Shown piece by piece: positions 34,157 to 44,037 of a DNA stretch of 64,000 nt. The notes beneath the pieces are model-generated. The model had not been told where the DNA came from. It did not search any database and saw only the letters and a list, made by a program, of their open reading frames with translations. The stretch is from Spartobacteria bacterium (GTDB taxonomy: Bacteria; Verrucomicrobiota; Verrucomicrobiia; Chthoniobacterales; UBA10450), in NCBI GenBank assembly GCA_003134785.1, contig PLCN01000021.1:193784-257783 (forward strand), written 5' to 3'. Position numbers and translations under genes: made by a program. Position 1 is the stretch's first letter; every line of letters begins with the position of its first letter.

Positions 34157-34291
34157 ATGAAACCGTTCGCTTCGTTCATCGGGTTCGGTTTCGACCACGA
34201 TTTTGAGATGGTTCCCGGCAAATGGACGCTCGAGGTAAGATTCAGAGGCCGGACATTGTGTAAGCAAGACTTCCAAGTTACTCGCGAGTGA
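34157..34291 (+). pseudogene. C-terminal fragment resembling DUF3859-type exported protein
   Basis: A 44-codon plus-strand frame (ATG 34157, TGA 34289-34291) reads FGFDHDFEMVPGKWTLEVRF and then RGRTLCKQDFQV. This is the look of the last two strands of a DUF3859-like domain, whose C-termini run GY(S/G)FDxxYELVPGxWxF. A stop lies upstream in frame at 34115, so only the tail remains. The matching N-terminal half type is seen on the opposite strand at 34337-34558. Family assignment is from memory of the pattern and is tentative. Confidence 0.35.
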
Positions 34292-34298
34292 ACACGTC

Positions 34299-34337
34299 TC
34301 CGGAGCCTAACCCGGCGACGCAGACATGTGGTTAGGT
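34299..34337 (-). other. Short attC-like site (cassette recombination site, degenerate)
   Basis: Read on the minus strand the site opens ACCTAAC and closes GTTAGGC, the paired R-box signature of integron attC sites (RYYYAAC ... GTTRRRY). Only 19 bases lie between, shorter than usual attC sites. The flanks CCTAACCA and GTTAGGCTCC match those of the long site at 34591-34713, so it may be that site with its loop deleted. The stop of the ORF at 34337 overlaps its first base. Confidence 0.4.
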
Positions 34338-34558
34338 CAAGGATAAGATGTTAAGAGGTAAAGTTTCTTCTGAGCGAAAGTCTCCTTGAGAAACTCGCGC
34401 GCCGCGCGCGCCGCTGTGTCAGGTGCGTCAACAGTTTTATAATCGGCAGGCACTCGAACGATTCCATAACCAGTAATTTTACCGCTGACTTCGTCCGCAG
34501 CGATACTAGACCAGCAAGCAGTCACAAGGAAAAACGCTGTCGTAATATGTTTTATCAT
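34337..34558 (-). CDS. Cassette-type ORF: N-terminal fragment of an exported protein
   Basis: 73 residues: signal peptide MIKHITTAFFLVTACWSSIA and then VSGKITGYGIVRVPADYKTV, which looks like the first strands of a DUF3859-type exported domain. After APDTAA the sequence turns into an unrelated helix (REFLKETFAQKKLYLLTSYP) and stops exactly at an attC-like core. The truncation at the recombination site, and a C-terminal piece of the same apparent family on the other strand at 34157-34291, suggest a rearranged cassette. Whether this short form is made or functional is unknown. Confidence 0.5.
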   Translation of the reverse strand: MIKHITTAFFLVTACWSSIAADEVSGKITGYGIVRVPADYKTVDAPDTAARAAREFLKETFAQKKLYLLTSYP

Positions 34559-34590
34559 GTTGGTTTCAATGTGTGCGTTGCGCGAAGGAG

Positions 34591-34713
34591 CCTAACGAGA
34601 CGGAGATAAGCTGTGGCGGGAGGGAGAGCGCGTGGGCCGCAATGAAAGCGTTTTAATCATCTCAGAAGTTAAGCGCAGAGCTTCCCGCCGTCAGCTTTAT
34701 CGTCGCATGGTTA
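34591..34713 (-). other. attC-like cassette recombination site, about 124 bases
   Basis: On the minus strand the site starts GCCTAACCATGCGACG and ends CCGTCTCGTTAGGC. The terminal R boxes are perfect inverted repeats. Inner arms ATAAAGCTGACGGCGGGAAG and CTCCCGCCACAGCTTATC pair with a few mismatches, giving the long imperfect hairpin that defines attC sites. Length is in the range of long attC sites. The upstream ORF (34721-35533) stops six bases before it. Confidence 0.62.
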
Positions 34714-34720
34714 GGCCATT

Positions 34721-35533
34721 TCATGACTTGGGTTTCTTCTGCCGGTCATTCCAGCCGTGAAGCGATTCAAGCATCTCTGACTCGCAAAGCGACAGAAACT
34801 TAGATGCCGCGATGAATGCCCGGCCAGCAAAATCAGAAAGCTCGCCGTCCACTAACAACGTCACAATCGTGTGCGGCTCGCCAGCGAATTGGTTTCTCCA
34901 AAGAAGCGTGCCGTGCTGGGACTCGGACACGGAGATAGATGCATCATCCTGAAGAACGCACGAGAACAACTTGCCTTCGATAGCGATCGCCGGGAACACA
35001 ATCTTAGCAAAAGGGCTTGCGAGCTTGGAATACTGGTCGGCTTCAATCGCAGCAGCCGCAGCCGCTGCTGCCACAGTGGTTAGAGCAGCATAGGCAACAT
35101 CTGCTCCGCTCGTGAAGGCTTGAGTAATGCCGTAAGCAGGCGGGTGTGCGACGCTGAATAAGTCTAAATCCTGAACATCTTTGCGTTGGGCGAGGCTGAG
35201 CAAAGCATCGCTGCCGATCTCAGAAGCCGTTCGCTGGGCTACTCGCGCTGGATTGGCTAAGCGCTGGTCGGAGGCGCAAAACATGACCCACGGTTTACTC
35301 TTCGAGGACTTGCATTCGACGACAAACTCAATCCGGACTAAAAGCTTTTCGAAGCGACGGTCAACATGTGCCACGACATCGATTTCGCGCTGCACGCCGC
35401 TCGTCGGATCAGCGTAGTACTCTGATTGCAGGACTCTGAATCCCGCACGGCGGAATGCGCAAGCGACACGCATCTCTAGCGGGTAGCCCTGGTCGTCAAG
35501 CCAACTCTTAATTTTGGATTCGAGTTCGCTCAC
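34721..35533 (-). CDS. Cassette-type ORF: nuclease-like protein of unknown function
   Basis: 270 residues from ATG 35533. The first 110 residues have the arrangement of a restriction-endonuclease-like fold: a helix (SWLDDQGYPLEMRVACAFRR), then GVQREIDVVAHVD, and later IEFVVECKSSKSKPW. This gives the E...D...ExK pattern of PD-(D/E)XK nucleases (Asp in REIDVV, Glu-x-Lys in VECKSS). The rest is alpha/beta with an Ala-rich helix (VAAAAAAAAIEAD). Orphan proteins of this kind are common as integron cassettes. It stops six bases before the attC-like site. Biological target unknown. Confidence 0.65.
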   Translation of the reverse strand: MSELESKIKSWLDDQGYPLEMRVACAFRRAGFRVLQSEYYADPTSGVQREIDVVAHVDRRFEKLLVRIEFVVECKSSKSKPWVMFCASDQRLANPARVAQRTASEIGSDALLSLAQRKDVQDLDLFSVAHPPAYGITQAFTSGADVAYAALTTVAAAAAAAAIEADQYSKLASPFAKIVFPAIAIEGKLFSCVLQDDASISVSESQHGTLLWRNQFAGEPHTIVTLLVDGELSDFAGRAFIAASKFLSLCESEMLESLHGWNDRQKKPKS

Positions 35534-35550
35534 AGTTTAACAAGCTAAGG

Positions 35551-35843
35551 CCTAACGAGAATTAGACGAATGTTCGTCTTTAAAGGCGAACGAGTCATCG
35601 CCTATTTCGTCTTAAAGGTTCTTGAACGGGGAATCGGACATAACGGCGATCCTATCGGATCGGACCGAATCCAACAATAGAAAACGGAGGGGAAGTTGAA
35701 CCCCATCTGCGGAGCAGAACAAACCAACGAGGAAGAGGAAGCGCTCCCAAGATTGACTCCAACCACTAACCCACTCAAAAAACATGAACTAAAAACCAAC
35801 CCAAACCTTACATCCGCGCTTGACTCCTACATAGGGGGTTAGG
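35551..35843 (-). other. Cassette boundary region with two attC-type cores
   Basis: On the minus strand GCCTAAC at 35842-35836 contains the TAA stop of the CPBP gene, and GTTAGGC lies at 35557-35551, upstream of the nuclease-like gene. The 293 bases between are too long for one attC. They hold a perfect palindrome GACGAATGTTCGTC (35572-35585) and short frames with no recognisable product. It may be a gene-less or decayed cassette between two degraded sites. This covers the whole gap between the two genes. Confidence 0.4.
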
Positions 35844-36282
35844 CCACATTCGTCGCGACCTGGACTCTCGCGACTCGCAATAGCTTGATAAGCGCGGCTA
35901 CCAGGGCGAGGGAGCAAACAACCGCGACCGTAGCGCCTGCGACGAAAAATGTATCTAGGCCGTGCACTTGAAATCGTCCGACAGGGAGACGGCCGACGAG
36001 CCCCCACTCGAGCGGCAGCGTCGCACCATCGACTAAGACGTGGACGACGATTGCCGGAAAGATTGATCGTGTTATGGCGGTCAATACTCCTAGTACGACG
36101 CTCGCAGCGCAAACCGGAATGGCTAATGGAAATATCTTAATGCCCCCAAACAGGTGAACGACGGTAAAAACGATCGTGACAATCGCAATCGCGAAAGGGG
36201 CGCTGACTCGACGCTCCAATATTCCCTGCATGTAGCCGCGATAGGCCGCCTCCTCTGCAACTCCGGCAACGATCGCATTCAT
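35839..36282 (-). CDS. N-terminally truncated CPBP-type membrane protease (cassette-type ORF)
   Basis: 147 residues from ATG 36282. The CPBP/CAAX-protease motif 1 is GVAEEAAYRGYMQG at residues 7-20 (Glu-Glu-x3-Arg). A second membrane region with VTIVFTVVHLFGG supplies the motif 2 histidine, and FPAIVVHVLVDG the third histidine. Normal members have two or three helices before motif 1; here they are missing. The frame continues upstream without a start codon to a stop near 36532 and includes one more half-helix (NLSLLVPVLI), so the gene looks cut about 13 codons before the ATG. Its stop is embedded in an attC-type core. Confidence 0.6.
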   Translation of the reverse strand: MNAIVAGVAEEAAYRGYMQGILERRVSAPFAIAIVTIVFTVVHLFGGIKIFPLAIPVCAASVVLGVLTAITRSIFPAIVVHVLVDGATLPLEWGLVGRLPVGRFQVHGLDTFFVAGATVAVVCSLALVAALIKLLRVARVQVATNVA

Positions 36283-36573
36283 GATTAGAACCGGGACGAG
36301 TAAACTTAGGTTCGGGCGCTTTCGGCGCCCTGTGGAATTGCACGAGGTGACGGCGTCACGTGGCAGATGATGGAGCGGCGAGCATCGTCTCGGTCGGACA
36401 TCTATTGGCTGGCGTTCAAAAAATCTTTCATTAGCCCGTAGGGAGTTCTTACAATCGCATTGAACAATGCCGTTCGGCGTAGAAATCGGCCCGCGCGAAT
36501 TGTAGAGTGGAAACCACGACGGTCGCGGTGGTCACAGAGTTCCGCGGATCGGCGAAAGGAGAATCACGCGATC

Positions 36574-37452: not shown

Positions 37453-37851
37453 TCACCGACTGCTCGATGCGAGTATTTCTTTCACTTTCGCGTCAATCAA
37501 GTCGCGTATCTTTCTAAATTCGTCCGGGTCGAGATTCTTCGGATCGGGAATCTGCCAGTCGGCCCGCTGCCTGGCCCGGACAAAAGGACAGGCGTCGCCA
37601 CAACCCATCGTCGCGACAAAATCGTATTCCTCATCCGGAATTTCATCGAGGGACTTGGAGGCGTGTTGGGAGAGATCGTAACCAAGCTCAGCCATGGAGG
37701 CGATGGCTTTGGGATTAACCACGCCGGAAGGACGTGAGCCGGCGCTATAAGCTTCAACTTCGTCGCCGCCATGGATGCGAGCGAATGCTTCCGCCATCTG
37801 GCTCCGGTTCGAGTTCTCCACGCAAACAAAGAGGAGGCGCGGCTTCTTCAT
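37453..37851 (-). CDS. arsC: Thioredoxin-coupled arsenate reductase
   Basis: 132 residues of the low-molecular-weight phosphatase fold. The active-site loop CVENSNRSQ gives Cys10 and Arg16 (C-x5-R), and the redox pair is Cys84 and Cys88 (TMGCGDACP). This matches the Cys10/Cys82/Cys89 triad of Staphylococcus ArsC. It reduces arsenate to arsenite with electrons from thioredoxin. Its ATG overlaps the stop of the aquaporin gene by four bases (ATGA). It is the last gene of the arsenic operon, so arsenite made here can leave through the channel encoded just upstream. Confidence 0.88.
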   Translation of the reverse strand: MKKPRLLFVCVENSNRSQMAEAFARIHGGDEVEAYSAGSRPSGVVNPKAIASMAELGYDLSQHASKSLDEIPDEEYDFVATMGCGDACPFVRARQRADWQIPDPKNLDPDEFRKIRDLIDAKVKEILASSSR

Positions 37852-38729
37852 GTTACTTGCTCGATGGGCCCACCCGAACAGCAGCCTTTTTCGCGCACGC
37901 AGATGCAGAGAGGCACGGCGAGAAGCGCTCCCGCGACCGGGGCTGCGAGATAAATCCAGAGCGAGGTGAAATTCCCCGCGATCAGCGCCGGGCCCAGCGA
38001 TCGCGCCGGATTCATCGATGCTCCGCAGATAGGACCGGCGAACATCGCTTCGAGGGCGATGACGCCGCCGATGGCGATGCCGGCCGTTATCCCTTTTTCC
38101 TGCGCTCCCACTGAGACATTGAGGATGACCAGCATAAGGATCGCGGTAAGCAAAAATTCCAGGACGAAGGACTGCATCGCGGAGCCGGCCGGCAGGGTCA
38201 TTCCCAAAGTAACGCTGTTAGGGAACAACAGGCGCAAGGTGGCACTGGCAGTTATCGCCCCGGCAATTTGCGACGCGACATAACGAAGACCTTCCCCGGT
38301 TTTCATTCGGCGCGCCGCGACGAAACCGCAGGTCACCGCAGGGTTAAGGTGCGCGCCGGAGATGTCGCCAAAGGTGTAGATCATTGTCATAACCACCAGG
38401 CCGAAGGTGAGTGCGATGCCAGCGTGCGAGATTACTCCACCGCTAGTTTGGTTAATAACAATCGCACCGGTCCCCGCGAAGACGAGGCAGTAGGTCCCGA
38501 GGAATTCGGAAATATATTTTTTCATGACAGGGATAACGAAGATGGTTTTGTGTGACTCGAAAGTAAGACGGCTGCCGCAAACAAGGAGCAAGGTTACAGT
38601 TAGCGCTCCGATACTCCAGATGGTCACGCCTGATTGAAAGTAAAGCCCGAGAGTTACCAGAGACATTGTCATCTGCGAAATCCCGACAAAGATTCGGAAG
38701 ATCGAGGCCGCGGGTCGCGTGGCTTTCAT
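37848..38729 (-). CDS. aqpS: Aquaglyceroporin (AqpS-like) with extra N-terminal two-helix domain
   Basis: 293 residues. Residues 69-293 form a full MIP channel: MKKYISEFLGTYCLVFAGTG, the first NPA box in GAHLNPAVTCGF and the second in GASMNPARSLGP. In AqpS-type operons such a channel replaces ArsB and lets arsenite out. Residues 1-68 add two further helices (VGISQMTMSLVTLGLYFQSG and IWSIGALTVTLLLVCGSRL) that ordinary aquaporins lack. The ATG at 38729 lies 11 bases after the stop of the upstream phosphatase gene, while the internal ATG at 38525 has no ribosome site, so I favour the fused form. It overlaps arsC downstream. Confidence 0.82.
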   Translation of the reverse strand: MKATRPAASIFRIFVGISQMTMSLVTLGLYFQSGVTIWSIGALTVTLLLVCGSRLTFESHKTIFVIPVMKKYISEFLGTYCLVFAGTGAIVINQTSGGVISHAGIALTFGLVVMTMIYTFGDISGAHLNPAVTCGFVAARRMKTGEGLRYVASQIAGAITASATLRLLFPNSVTLGMTLPAGSAMQSFVLEFLLTAILMLVILNVSVGAQEKGITAGIAIGGVIALEAMFAGPICGASMNPARSLGPALIAGNFTSLWIYLAAPVAGALLAVPLCICVREKGCCSGGPIEQVT

Positions 38730-38740
38730 AGCTAGCTCAG

Positions 38741-39211
38741 TTATGTGCGGCTCTCAGCCGGCGCGCGCCTGAAACTGGGGCAGACTTCATCGCACCATTT
38801 CTCGATCCGGACTTTTATGAAATCGCGCACCTGACGAGTCTGTTCCAACCTCGCAGCTTCGCTCCCGCGAAAACTCGATGGGTCAGGAAAAGGCCACGAC
38901 AATCCGGTCGTGACGCCCGGAAAGATCGGACAGGCTCGCGCGTTCTTTTCCGCCTGGCTGCAAACCGTCACCACATAGGCAAAGGCGCTCCCGGTTTTCC
39001 AGACATCGAAAACCTTTCGCGTCTGCTGACGCGAAATGTCGATGCCCATCTCTCGCATCGCTTCGATCGCCAGCGGATCGATTGTTCCCGCTTCGAGGCC
39101 CGCGCTCTGCGCTTCGAATTCGTCTCCGCAAATCTGATTCAACCACGCTTCCGCCATTTGGCTGCGCGCGCTGTTATGCACGCAAATGAACAGGACCTTT
39201 TTCTTCTTCAC
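38741..39211 (-). CDS. Second low-molecular-weight phosphatase / arsenate reductase
   Basis: 156 residues. The loop CVHNSARSQMAEA gives Cys10-x5-Arg16. Cys84 (VTVCSQAE) and Cys94 (RACPIFPG) are possible redox partners, with WPFPDPSSFRG carrying the catalytic Asp. The family is annotated as arsenate reductase or protein-tyrosine phosphatase and frequently sits beside ArsR. It is a paralogue of the gene at 37453 but clearly a different subfamily (longer, with CPIFPG). It lies six bases downstream of arsR and 11 bases upstream of the aquaporin. Confidence 0.8.
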   Translation of the reverse strand: MKKKKVLFICVHNSARSQMAEAWLNQICGDEFEAQSAGLEAGTIDPLAIEAMREMGIDISRQQTRKVFDVWKTGSAFAYVVTVCSQAEKNARACPIFPGVTTGLSWPFPDPSSFRGSEAARLEQTRQVRDFIKVRIEKWCDEVCPSFRRAPAESRT

Positions 39212-39217
39212 AACTCG

Positions 39218-39628
39218 TCACGTCCTCCGGCCGCGCGATCGAGGATTGGGAGTCACGAAGCTGGCCCGGCGCTTCAGCGTAGCTAAAATTCCAGTCGGTT
39301 CGCAGCACTTTGAGCGCAGCTTTGAGAGCGCCTTCAGATCGCGTTTGAAAACGGGGTCGCTTTGCCCGCAATCCTGCAAGCATTTCAAGTTTGCCTCCAG
39401 CTCCGCATCGCGCGTCTTCGGCAGCGAGTAGATCATCCAATTCTGTTCCCGCTCGGCGACGACCATATCGCGCTCTTTTAAGTAGGAAAGGTGCTTCGAG
39501 ATTTTCACCTGCGGCTCATCGAGGATTTCCTGAAAGTGGCAGACACAAAGAGGGGTTTGCGACAGCAGGTTCAGAATGCGCAATCGGGTCCGATCGCAGA
39601 AGCACTCGTAAATTTGAACCAGATCCAT
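39218..39628 (-). CDS. arsR: ArsR-family metalloregulator
   Basis: 136 residues. The winged helix shows RTRLRILNLLSQTPLCVCHF with the CVC metal site (Cys28 and Cys30), the recognition helix EPQVKISKHLSYLKE and the wing RDMVVAEREQNWMIYSL. The C-terminal part has CLQDC and KCCEP, additional cysteines that may take part in As(III) binding. ArsR proteins repress until arsenite binds. The gene sits between a DUF6428 gene (10 bases upstream) and a phosphatase gene. The likely operator is the palindrome at 40108-40127, in front of the whole operon. Confidence 0.88.
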   Translation of the reverse strand: MDLVQIYECFCDRTRLRILNLLSQTPLCVCHFQEILDEPQVKISKHLSYLKERDMVVAEREQNWMIYSLPKTRDAELEANLKCLQDCGQSDPVFKRDLKALSKLRSKCCEPTGILATLKRRASFVTPNPRSRGRRT

Positions 39629-43908: not shown

Positions 43909-44004
43909 ACTCCTGCCGCGCATCGCTGCGCTAAACAGGAGTCATTAGCTCTGAACCGGTCAGGCGGTTTTCCCGAATCTCGGAAAGGCAAACTCCATTG
44001 CCTG
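43909..44004 (-). promoter_or_regulatory. Fluoride riboswitch (crcB RNA motif) with Shine-Dalgarno-masking platform
   Basis: Read on the minus strand: AGGCAATGGAGTTTGCCT (the first stem with the conserved GGNGATGG-like loop), then AAAACCGCCTGACCGGTT, and GCTAATGACTCCTG closing the pseudoknot. This is the characteristic order of the crcB/fluoride motif. The 3' ACTCCTG is exactly complementary to CAGGAGT at 43909-43915, which contains the ribosome-binding site of crcB. Without fluoride the two should pair and block translation; with fluoride the GACTCCTG is held in the aptamer. The stem is followed by TTTTATT, so partial transcription control is also possible. Confidence 0.88.
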
Positions 44005-44009
44005 ATTCG

Positions 44010-44037
44010 AAGTTAGTGAGCGTAGGTTTGTCGTCAA
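44010..44037 (-). promoter_or_regulatory. Candidate promoter of the fluoride operon
   Basis: Minus strand TTGACG (44037-44032), a 16-base spacer, and TAACTT (44015-44010). It would start transcription just at the 5' end of the riboswitch. Confidence 0.42.

What the first reader, a model, noticed from the sequence alone, without database searches (positions are those of the whole stretch)
34157..36532. Integron-cassette-like mini array without an integrase
Three minus-strand ORFs each end at or within 6 bases of a GCCTAAC-type core: stop inside the core at 35839, 6 bases at 34721, overlapping at 34337. The site at 34591-34713 is a long imperfect palindrome with matching R boxes, as expected of attC. 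ORF content (orphan nuclease-like protein, truncated CPBP protease, exported fragment) is typical for cassettes. No intI gene lies in the window, so it would be a CALIN (cluster of attC sites lacking an integrase). Verrucomicrobial integrons are little described.
Basis: partly seen in the sequence, partly recalled or inferred. Interest (0 to 1): 0.78.

Follow-up and report, generated by a model that had tools for sequence, protein, structure and literature searches.

The report
Integron arrays without their own integrase
This stretch is a real, small set of swappable genes of the kind bacteria collect with integrons; it keeps a docking site but has no integrase gene beside it, and relatives of this soil bacterium carry many such docking sites, often just behind ordinary genes.

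Summary
Confirmed: 34590-34716 is a genuine attC. A covariance model built only from other attC sites of this genome finds it at 82 bits, E 2.3e-19. The genome (soil Verrucomicrobia, Chthoniobacterales/Udaeobacter group) has about 27 attC sites and two integron-integrase genes on other contigs, both broken.

35550-35608 matches a palindromic attI found in 54 of 83 family genomes, up to about nine loci per genome. Beside intI it sits 33-42 bp away (intI reading towards it) or about 80-86 bp (divergent). Of 78 distinct heads, 62 have at least 1.5 kb of flank without a full intI. attC lies on the expected side in 41 of 49 testable heads, on the other side in 1. Heads usually sit behind co-directional host genes. 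Between pgeF and lpxA, related species carry the same head with different single cassettes, none, or no head.

Best reading: integrase-less arrays with a solo attI, served in trans. The window copy is scarred and probably idle.

The parts
35550..35608 (-). attI-like head: R box GTTAGGC (35550-35556), spacer TCTC (35557-35560), L box GTCTAAT (35561-35567), then the palindrome (letters given on the minus strand)
   Evidence: Found in 54 of 83 family genomes; same element beside intI in relatives; covarying inner stem
35609..35717 (.). Flank of the head, shared only with C4:287414-287563 in this genome, which is another array without integrase
34721..35533 (-). Cassette 1: 270-aa orphan protein. 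A PD-(D/E)XK-like motif (EIDVVAHV..VECKSSK) is seen by eye only
   Evidence: no Pfam, PADLOC, NCBIfam or PDB family and no relative in 82 other family genomes or in plasmids
34590..34716 (+). attC of cassette 1, given as the bottom strand (the strand expected to recombine)
   Evidence: Held-out models: nhmmer E 9.7e-13, covariance model 82 bits, E 2.3e-19
34337..34558 (-). Cassette 2: 73-aa protein with a signal-peptide-like start
   Evidence: no family match
34305..34337 (+). Degenerate or truncated distal site: two R-type boxes 33 bp end to end
   Evidence: Boxes seen; fold not significant; not found by the model
35718..35837 (+). Right-end remnant of an IS110/IS1111-type element that targets attC
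   Evidence: Copies at C3, C9, C10, C16 mostly abutting GTTAGRC; full copy encodes PF02371/PF01548 transposase
35838..35844 (+). R'' box of the attC split by the IS remnant; holds the CPBP stop codon
35839..36282 (-). N-truncated CPBP (Rce1-like) intramembrane protease gene, probable former cassette
   Evidence: PF02517, E 9.4e-17

Best explanation
The window holds an integron cassette array without an integrase but with its own attI. It is one of a class of 'solo-attI' arrays scattered over the chromosomes of Chthoniobacterales. The attI is a roughly 60-bp palindrome ending in an L box, a 4-bp spacer and an R box. It mostly lies just behind a host gene that reads into it, so cassettes are probably transcribed by read-through. 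An integron integrase encoded elsewhere in the cell, or brought in, inserts cassettes in trans at G|TTAGRY of this site. Shown: the attC, the head, the missing intI, homology of the head to intI-linked attI sites, co-directional flanking genes, and different cassettes at one homologous site in several species. Inferred: recombination in trans, read-through expression, and how heads reach new places. The window copy is scarred by an attC-targeting IS and sits in a genome whose only two intI genes are broken, so it is probably idle now.
For: attC. Head in 54 of 83 genomes. Same element 33-42 bp behind intI or about 80-86 bp before a divergent intI. 62 of 78 distinct heads have at least 1.5 kb of flank with no full intI; attC on the expected side in 41 of 49, on the other side in 1. 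Only one of the 62 has an intI remnant. Flanking ORF reads into the array in 46 of 62. G024 and G026 have nine and six head loci and no IntI over the cut-off. pgeF-lpxA: same head, different cassettes, no cassette, or no head; attC joins lpxA at the native G|TTAGAT. Covarying stem.
Against: No recombination was tested. Most genomes are MAGs, so an integrase may be missing from the assembly. Head movement is not explained: its left edge is not a G|TT junction. The loci were gathered with the window head as bait, so 62 of 78 is not a census. Some heads have no recognised attC. The window copy has no syntenic comparison and its genome has no intact IntI.
Confidence: 0.6

Rival explanations
1. Plain decayed integron: the array once had intI beside its attI and lost it by deletion. 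It is an ordinary CALIN, and all solo heads arose by repeated loss of intI.
For: Both intI genes of this genome are broken. One solo head (C3:91667) does have an intI remnant. The window head is flanked by an IS remnant, which could have removed intI.
Against: 61 of 62 solo heads show no intI trace in 1.5 kb. Heads sit directly behind ordinary genes. The pgeF-lpxA head has different cassettes in related species and an empty state without any integrase. Loss could still have preceded duplication of the head.
Confidence: 0.25
2. Off-target arrays: cassettes were inserted at secondary genomic sites (attG) by IntI, and the head is a by-product, such as a very short cassette without ORF or a collapsed attC.
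For: Arrays at pgeF-lpxA end exactly at a native G|TTAGAT. attG insertion of cassettes is known (cited in PMC12901181 and PMC12444791). The head folds as a palindrome.
Against: The head is nearly the same sequence at tens of unrelated loci and is the same element that lies beside intI. The attC sites of these genomes look quite different. The head lacks an R'' box.
Confidence: 0.1
3. The head is a terminator or leader element of the upstream gene that happens to contain an integrase core site, and it is kept for transcription rather than for recombination.
For: It covaries as a stem, sits behind gene ends and has a T run after the inner stem on the strand opposite to the cassettes.
Against: It contains L and R integrase boxes with a nearly invariant TCTCGTTAG junction and is tied to attC arrays on one side. 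The T run is on the wrong strand to end the upstream gene.
Confidence: 0.05

Closest known systems
CALIN (cluster of attC sites lacking an integron-integrase; IntegronFinder, PMC9024848)
   Same: attC-bearing cassettes with no intI nearby
   Different: Has its own attI; the window has one full attC, while IntegronFinder 2 asks for two by default
Inverse integron, intI reading towards attI (Treponema, PMC3607928)
   Same: In relatives the same head lies 33-42 bp behind an intI that reads towards it
   Different: In the window and in most copies there is no intI; host genes take that place
Canonical chromosomal integron with divergent intI
   Same: attI with L and R boxes heading an array of attC cassettes; two such integrons with broken intI in this genome
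   Different: No intI at this locus; the palindrome has a fixed sequence in solo heads
attG insertion of cassettes into bacterial genomes (Loot 2024, cited in PMC12901181 and PMC12444791)
   Same: Arrays lie at native G|TT core sites away from intI
   Different: A conserved head precedes the first cassette; attG insertion is not described as bringing one
IS1111 elements targeting attC (ISKpn4, ISPst6; PMC11187229)
   Same: IS110-type transposase, long non-coding region behind tnp, insertion at one end of attC
   Different: The window holds only a 120-bp right-end remnant; membership of the named group was not tested by phylogeny

Membership tests
Integron gene cassette array (attC) | attC recognised by a structure-and-sequence model | tested here: met
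   82 bits, E 2.3e-19 with a model made without it
Integron gene cassette array (attC) | ORFs end at the attC R'' box and share one orientation | tested here: met
   ORF 34721-35533 ends 4 bases from the box; ORF 34337-34558 ends at 34337 in the degenerate site; both on the minus strand
CALIN | No intI near the attC sites | tested here: met
   No TIGR02249 match in the window; IntI only on C10 and C22
CALIN | At least two attC sites (IntegronFinder 2 default) | tested here: not met
   One full attC; 34305-34337 and the IS-split site do not score
Complete integron | intI next to attI | tested here: not met
   No intI on either side of the head
attI | Homologous to the site between intI and the first cassette | tested here: met
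   Same element beside intI in seven inverse and three canonical cases
attI | L and R boxes with G|TT crossover | tested here: met
   GTCTAAT-TCTC-GTTAGGC in the window; alignment. Presence of the boxes only; the crossover itself was not tested
attI | Recombined by IntI | not testable with these tools
   Needs an assay; only cassette differences at a homologous site were seen
IS1111 elements targeting attC | DEDD transposase and insertion at one end of attC | tested here: met
   PF01548 and PF02371 in the full copy; flanks of an L042 copy make one attC. Met for full copies, not for the remnant itself
IS1111 elements targeting attC | Sub-terminal inverted repeats of 11-13 bp and a seekRNA guide | not tested
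   Imperfect end repeats and a GCCTAACGA motif in the non-coding region were seen by eye only

The most novel reading that the evidence does not exclude
Chthoniobacterales run a distributed integron: many small arrays, each with a solo palindromic attI placed behind a host gene that supplies transcription, all served in trans by one or no resident integrase, with the attI itself able to spread to new gene ends.
Probability: 0.45. Interest if true: 0.82.

Novelty: new variant of a known kind. Interest (0 to 1): 0.66.

Why it matters
Integrons are drawn as one platform: intI, attI, cassettes. Here attI is uncoupled from intI and repeated around the chromosome, mostly behind co-directional genes. 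If cassettes really enter these sites in trans, new genes can be placed behind several host transcription units rather than behind one promoter, and many arrays filed as dead CALINs may be live acceptor sites. attI sites outside class 1 integrons are called poorly described (PMC9024848); this gives an alignment of 41, with a covarying stem, that can be searched for and tested.

Tried and rejected
Simple pattern search for GCCTAAC..GTTAGGC pairs gave mostly chance hits (9 against 7 in the reversed control). Reading 35550-35844 as one 295-bp attC: rejected, because the right half is an IS end and the left half is a head found alone elsewhere. Reading the 120-bp repeat as part of the integron: rejected, one copy (C10:318575) ends without GTTAGGC and full copies encode an IS110 transposase. 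Group II intron as the source of that repeat: rejected by the transposase match. Same-locus comparison in the genus: only 341 bp of the right flank has a counterpart, in another context. Function of the 270-aa protein: no database match. Rfam finds nothing at the array.

Full report
WHAT IS THERE. The window is G000:C4:193784-257783 of a 4.39-Mb, 25-contig genome. Named matches to the head sequence come almost only from soil Verrucomicrobia MAGs (Spartobacteria, Chthoniobacterales, Candidatus Udaeobacter), so the genome very probably belongs to that group. The array reads on the minus strand: head 35550-35608, cassette 1 (34721-35533), attC 34590-34716, cassette 2 (34337-34558), degenerate distal site 34305-34337.

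IS THE attC REAL. I built a profile from eleven attC sites elsewhere in the genome and searched the loci held; the window site scored E 9.7e-13. A covariance model from twelve such sites (alignment, model R1), again without the window site, scored it 82 bits, E 2.3e-19, in the whole genome. It found about 27 sites in some eleven places. So the attC is well beyond chance, and the genome is rich in cassettes.

INTEGRASES. The family model TIGR02249 finds IntI at C10:4543-5484 (465 bits, in-frame TGA where the C22 copy has TGG) and a truncated copy at C22:2663-2978. Both have a canonical attI upstream, identical over 124 bp, with attC arrays on the far side. In the family, 33 of 83 genomes have an IntI over the cut-off.

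THE IS REMNANT. Window 35718-35837 recurs at C3, C9, C10 and C16 and in nearly all cases ends against GTTAGRC; one copy (C10:318575) does not. The full copy L040:7100-8638 encodes a 377-aa transposase with PF02371 and PF01548 and has a long non-coding region behind the gene. In L042 the two flanks of a copy make one attC...CTCCATCGCC | IS | GTTAGGC. That is the behaviour reported for IS1111 elements that target one end of attC (PMC11187229). The CPBP gene (PF02517) ends inside such a split R'' box and is cut off at its N-terminus near 36305.

THE HEAD. Window 35548-35610 matches 54 of 83 family genomes, often at several loci. Aligned in cassette direction the consensus is TTAGACGAAAAAATGTTCGCCTTTAAnTACGAACTTTCGTCTAATTCTCGTTAGG. 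It ends in an L box (GTCTAAT), a 4-bp spacer and an R box (GTTAGGC), the layout I recall for the simple site of attI1 (from memory). The inner stem changes on both sides: 97.6% of cells paired, 16 compensatory cells in two pairs; all measures exceed the slid controls and nearly all shuffles. Relatedness of the sequences inflates the shuffle control, so this is support, not proof, of a hairpin. Next to intI the same element stands either 33-42 bp behind the end of an intI that reads towards it (inverse type, as in Treponema, PMC3607928) or about 80-86 bp before a divergent intI.

SOLO HEADS. Among 78 distinct heads, 62 have at least 1.5 kb of flank with no full intI. A looser search with 31 IntI proteins finds a remnant behind only one, C3:91667 of the own genome, which shows that the search can see remnants. 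attC lies within 1.3 kb on the array side in 41 of 49 heads with enough sequence on both sides, and on the other side in 1. The nearest ORF on the flank reads into the array in 46 of 62 (p 2e-4), or 36 of 51 after collapsing by hand loci shared between species (p 0.005). By eye these include pgeF/yfiH, rpsD, a glutamine synthetase gene, nuoC and a histidine kinase gene. Solo arrays are short: 0-8 attC within 7.5 kb. G024 (97% complete) and G026 (95%) have nine and six head loci, some of them weak or short forms, and no IntI over the cut-off; their best matches, 83 and 79 bits, are far below the 265-bit cut-off and match only the conserved C-terminal stretch.

OCCUPIED, EMPTY AND HEAD-LESS SITES. 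pgeF and lpxA converge (gene names from the protein sequences). In several species of genus g14 the head begins at the pgeF stop codon. G062 has a HAD-like cassette, G076 a SnoaL-like one, G075 a third, and G063 an insert without a long ORF; G050 has the head with no cassette; G037, G071 and others have no head. In G076 the attC runs into lpxA exactly at G|TTAGATCGACAT, which is the native sequence in head-less G037. So a head without any integrase beside it has held different cassettes in related species. Behind rpsD, heads stand in G021 and in four g5 genomes at different distances and are missing in the other rpsD loci read.

READING. The simplest account is an attI that works without a neighbouring intI, filled in trans. 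Shown: anatomy, homology, lack of intI, cassette differences at one site. Inferred: recombination in trans, read-through expression, and the way heads spread; the left edge of the head is not a G|TT junction, so head movement is unexplained. The window copy is a damaged example: IS remnant beside the head, degenerate distal site, no intact IntI in the genome. It shares about 110 bp of extra flank only with C4:287414-287563, also integrase-less, so the two probably arose by duplication within this genome.

KNOWN OR NEW. Integrons in Verrucomicrobiota are listed in a review (PMC8618304), CALINs are common (PMC9024848), trans use of CALIN cassettes is proposed (PMC9668308) and inverse integrons are known (PMC3607928). 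I found no report of repeated solo attI sites heading arrays in the open-access papers searched; subscription papers were not searched. I rate it a new variant of a known kind.

Noticed in passing
window 43929-44011 (-): Fluoride riboswitch (RF01734), 42.5 bits against a gathering score of 34.
   Followed up: no
window 37453-39628 (-): Arsenic-type gene cluster next to the array by eye: two arsenate-reductase-like ORFs, a MIP channel-like ORF and an ArsR-like ORF.
   Followed up: no
window 36314-36353: A 40-bp dispersed repeat (CGCTTTCGGCGCC...GAGGTGACGG) at the broken N-terminus of the CPBP gene; also about 200 bp behind the C10 intI and at C4:183786.
   Followed up: partly
L040:7100-8638 (-): The non-coding region behind the IS transposase gene carries GCCTAACGAAACTTTAAGC, resembling the attC/attI core; it could be the guide of a seekRNA.
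   Followed up: no
G000:C24:399439-399507: Clustered GTCTAACGCCTAACGCCTAACGTCC repeats that look like tandem integrase cores but are not found by the attC model.
   Followed up: no
L145 (QIAL01000275.1): One head lies on a 3.5-kb contig of a MAG labelled Acidobacteria, next to an M48-like peptidase gene: transfer between phyla or a binning error.
   Followed up: no
L117:3994-4020, L118:8002-8029, L136:4022: A variant head in which the inner palindrome is replaced by CACGTGCACGTGCA-type sequence while TAACGAGAATTAGRCG is kept.
   Followed up: no
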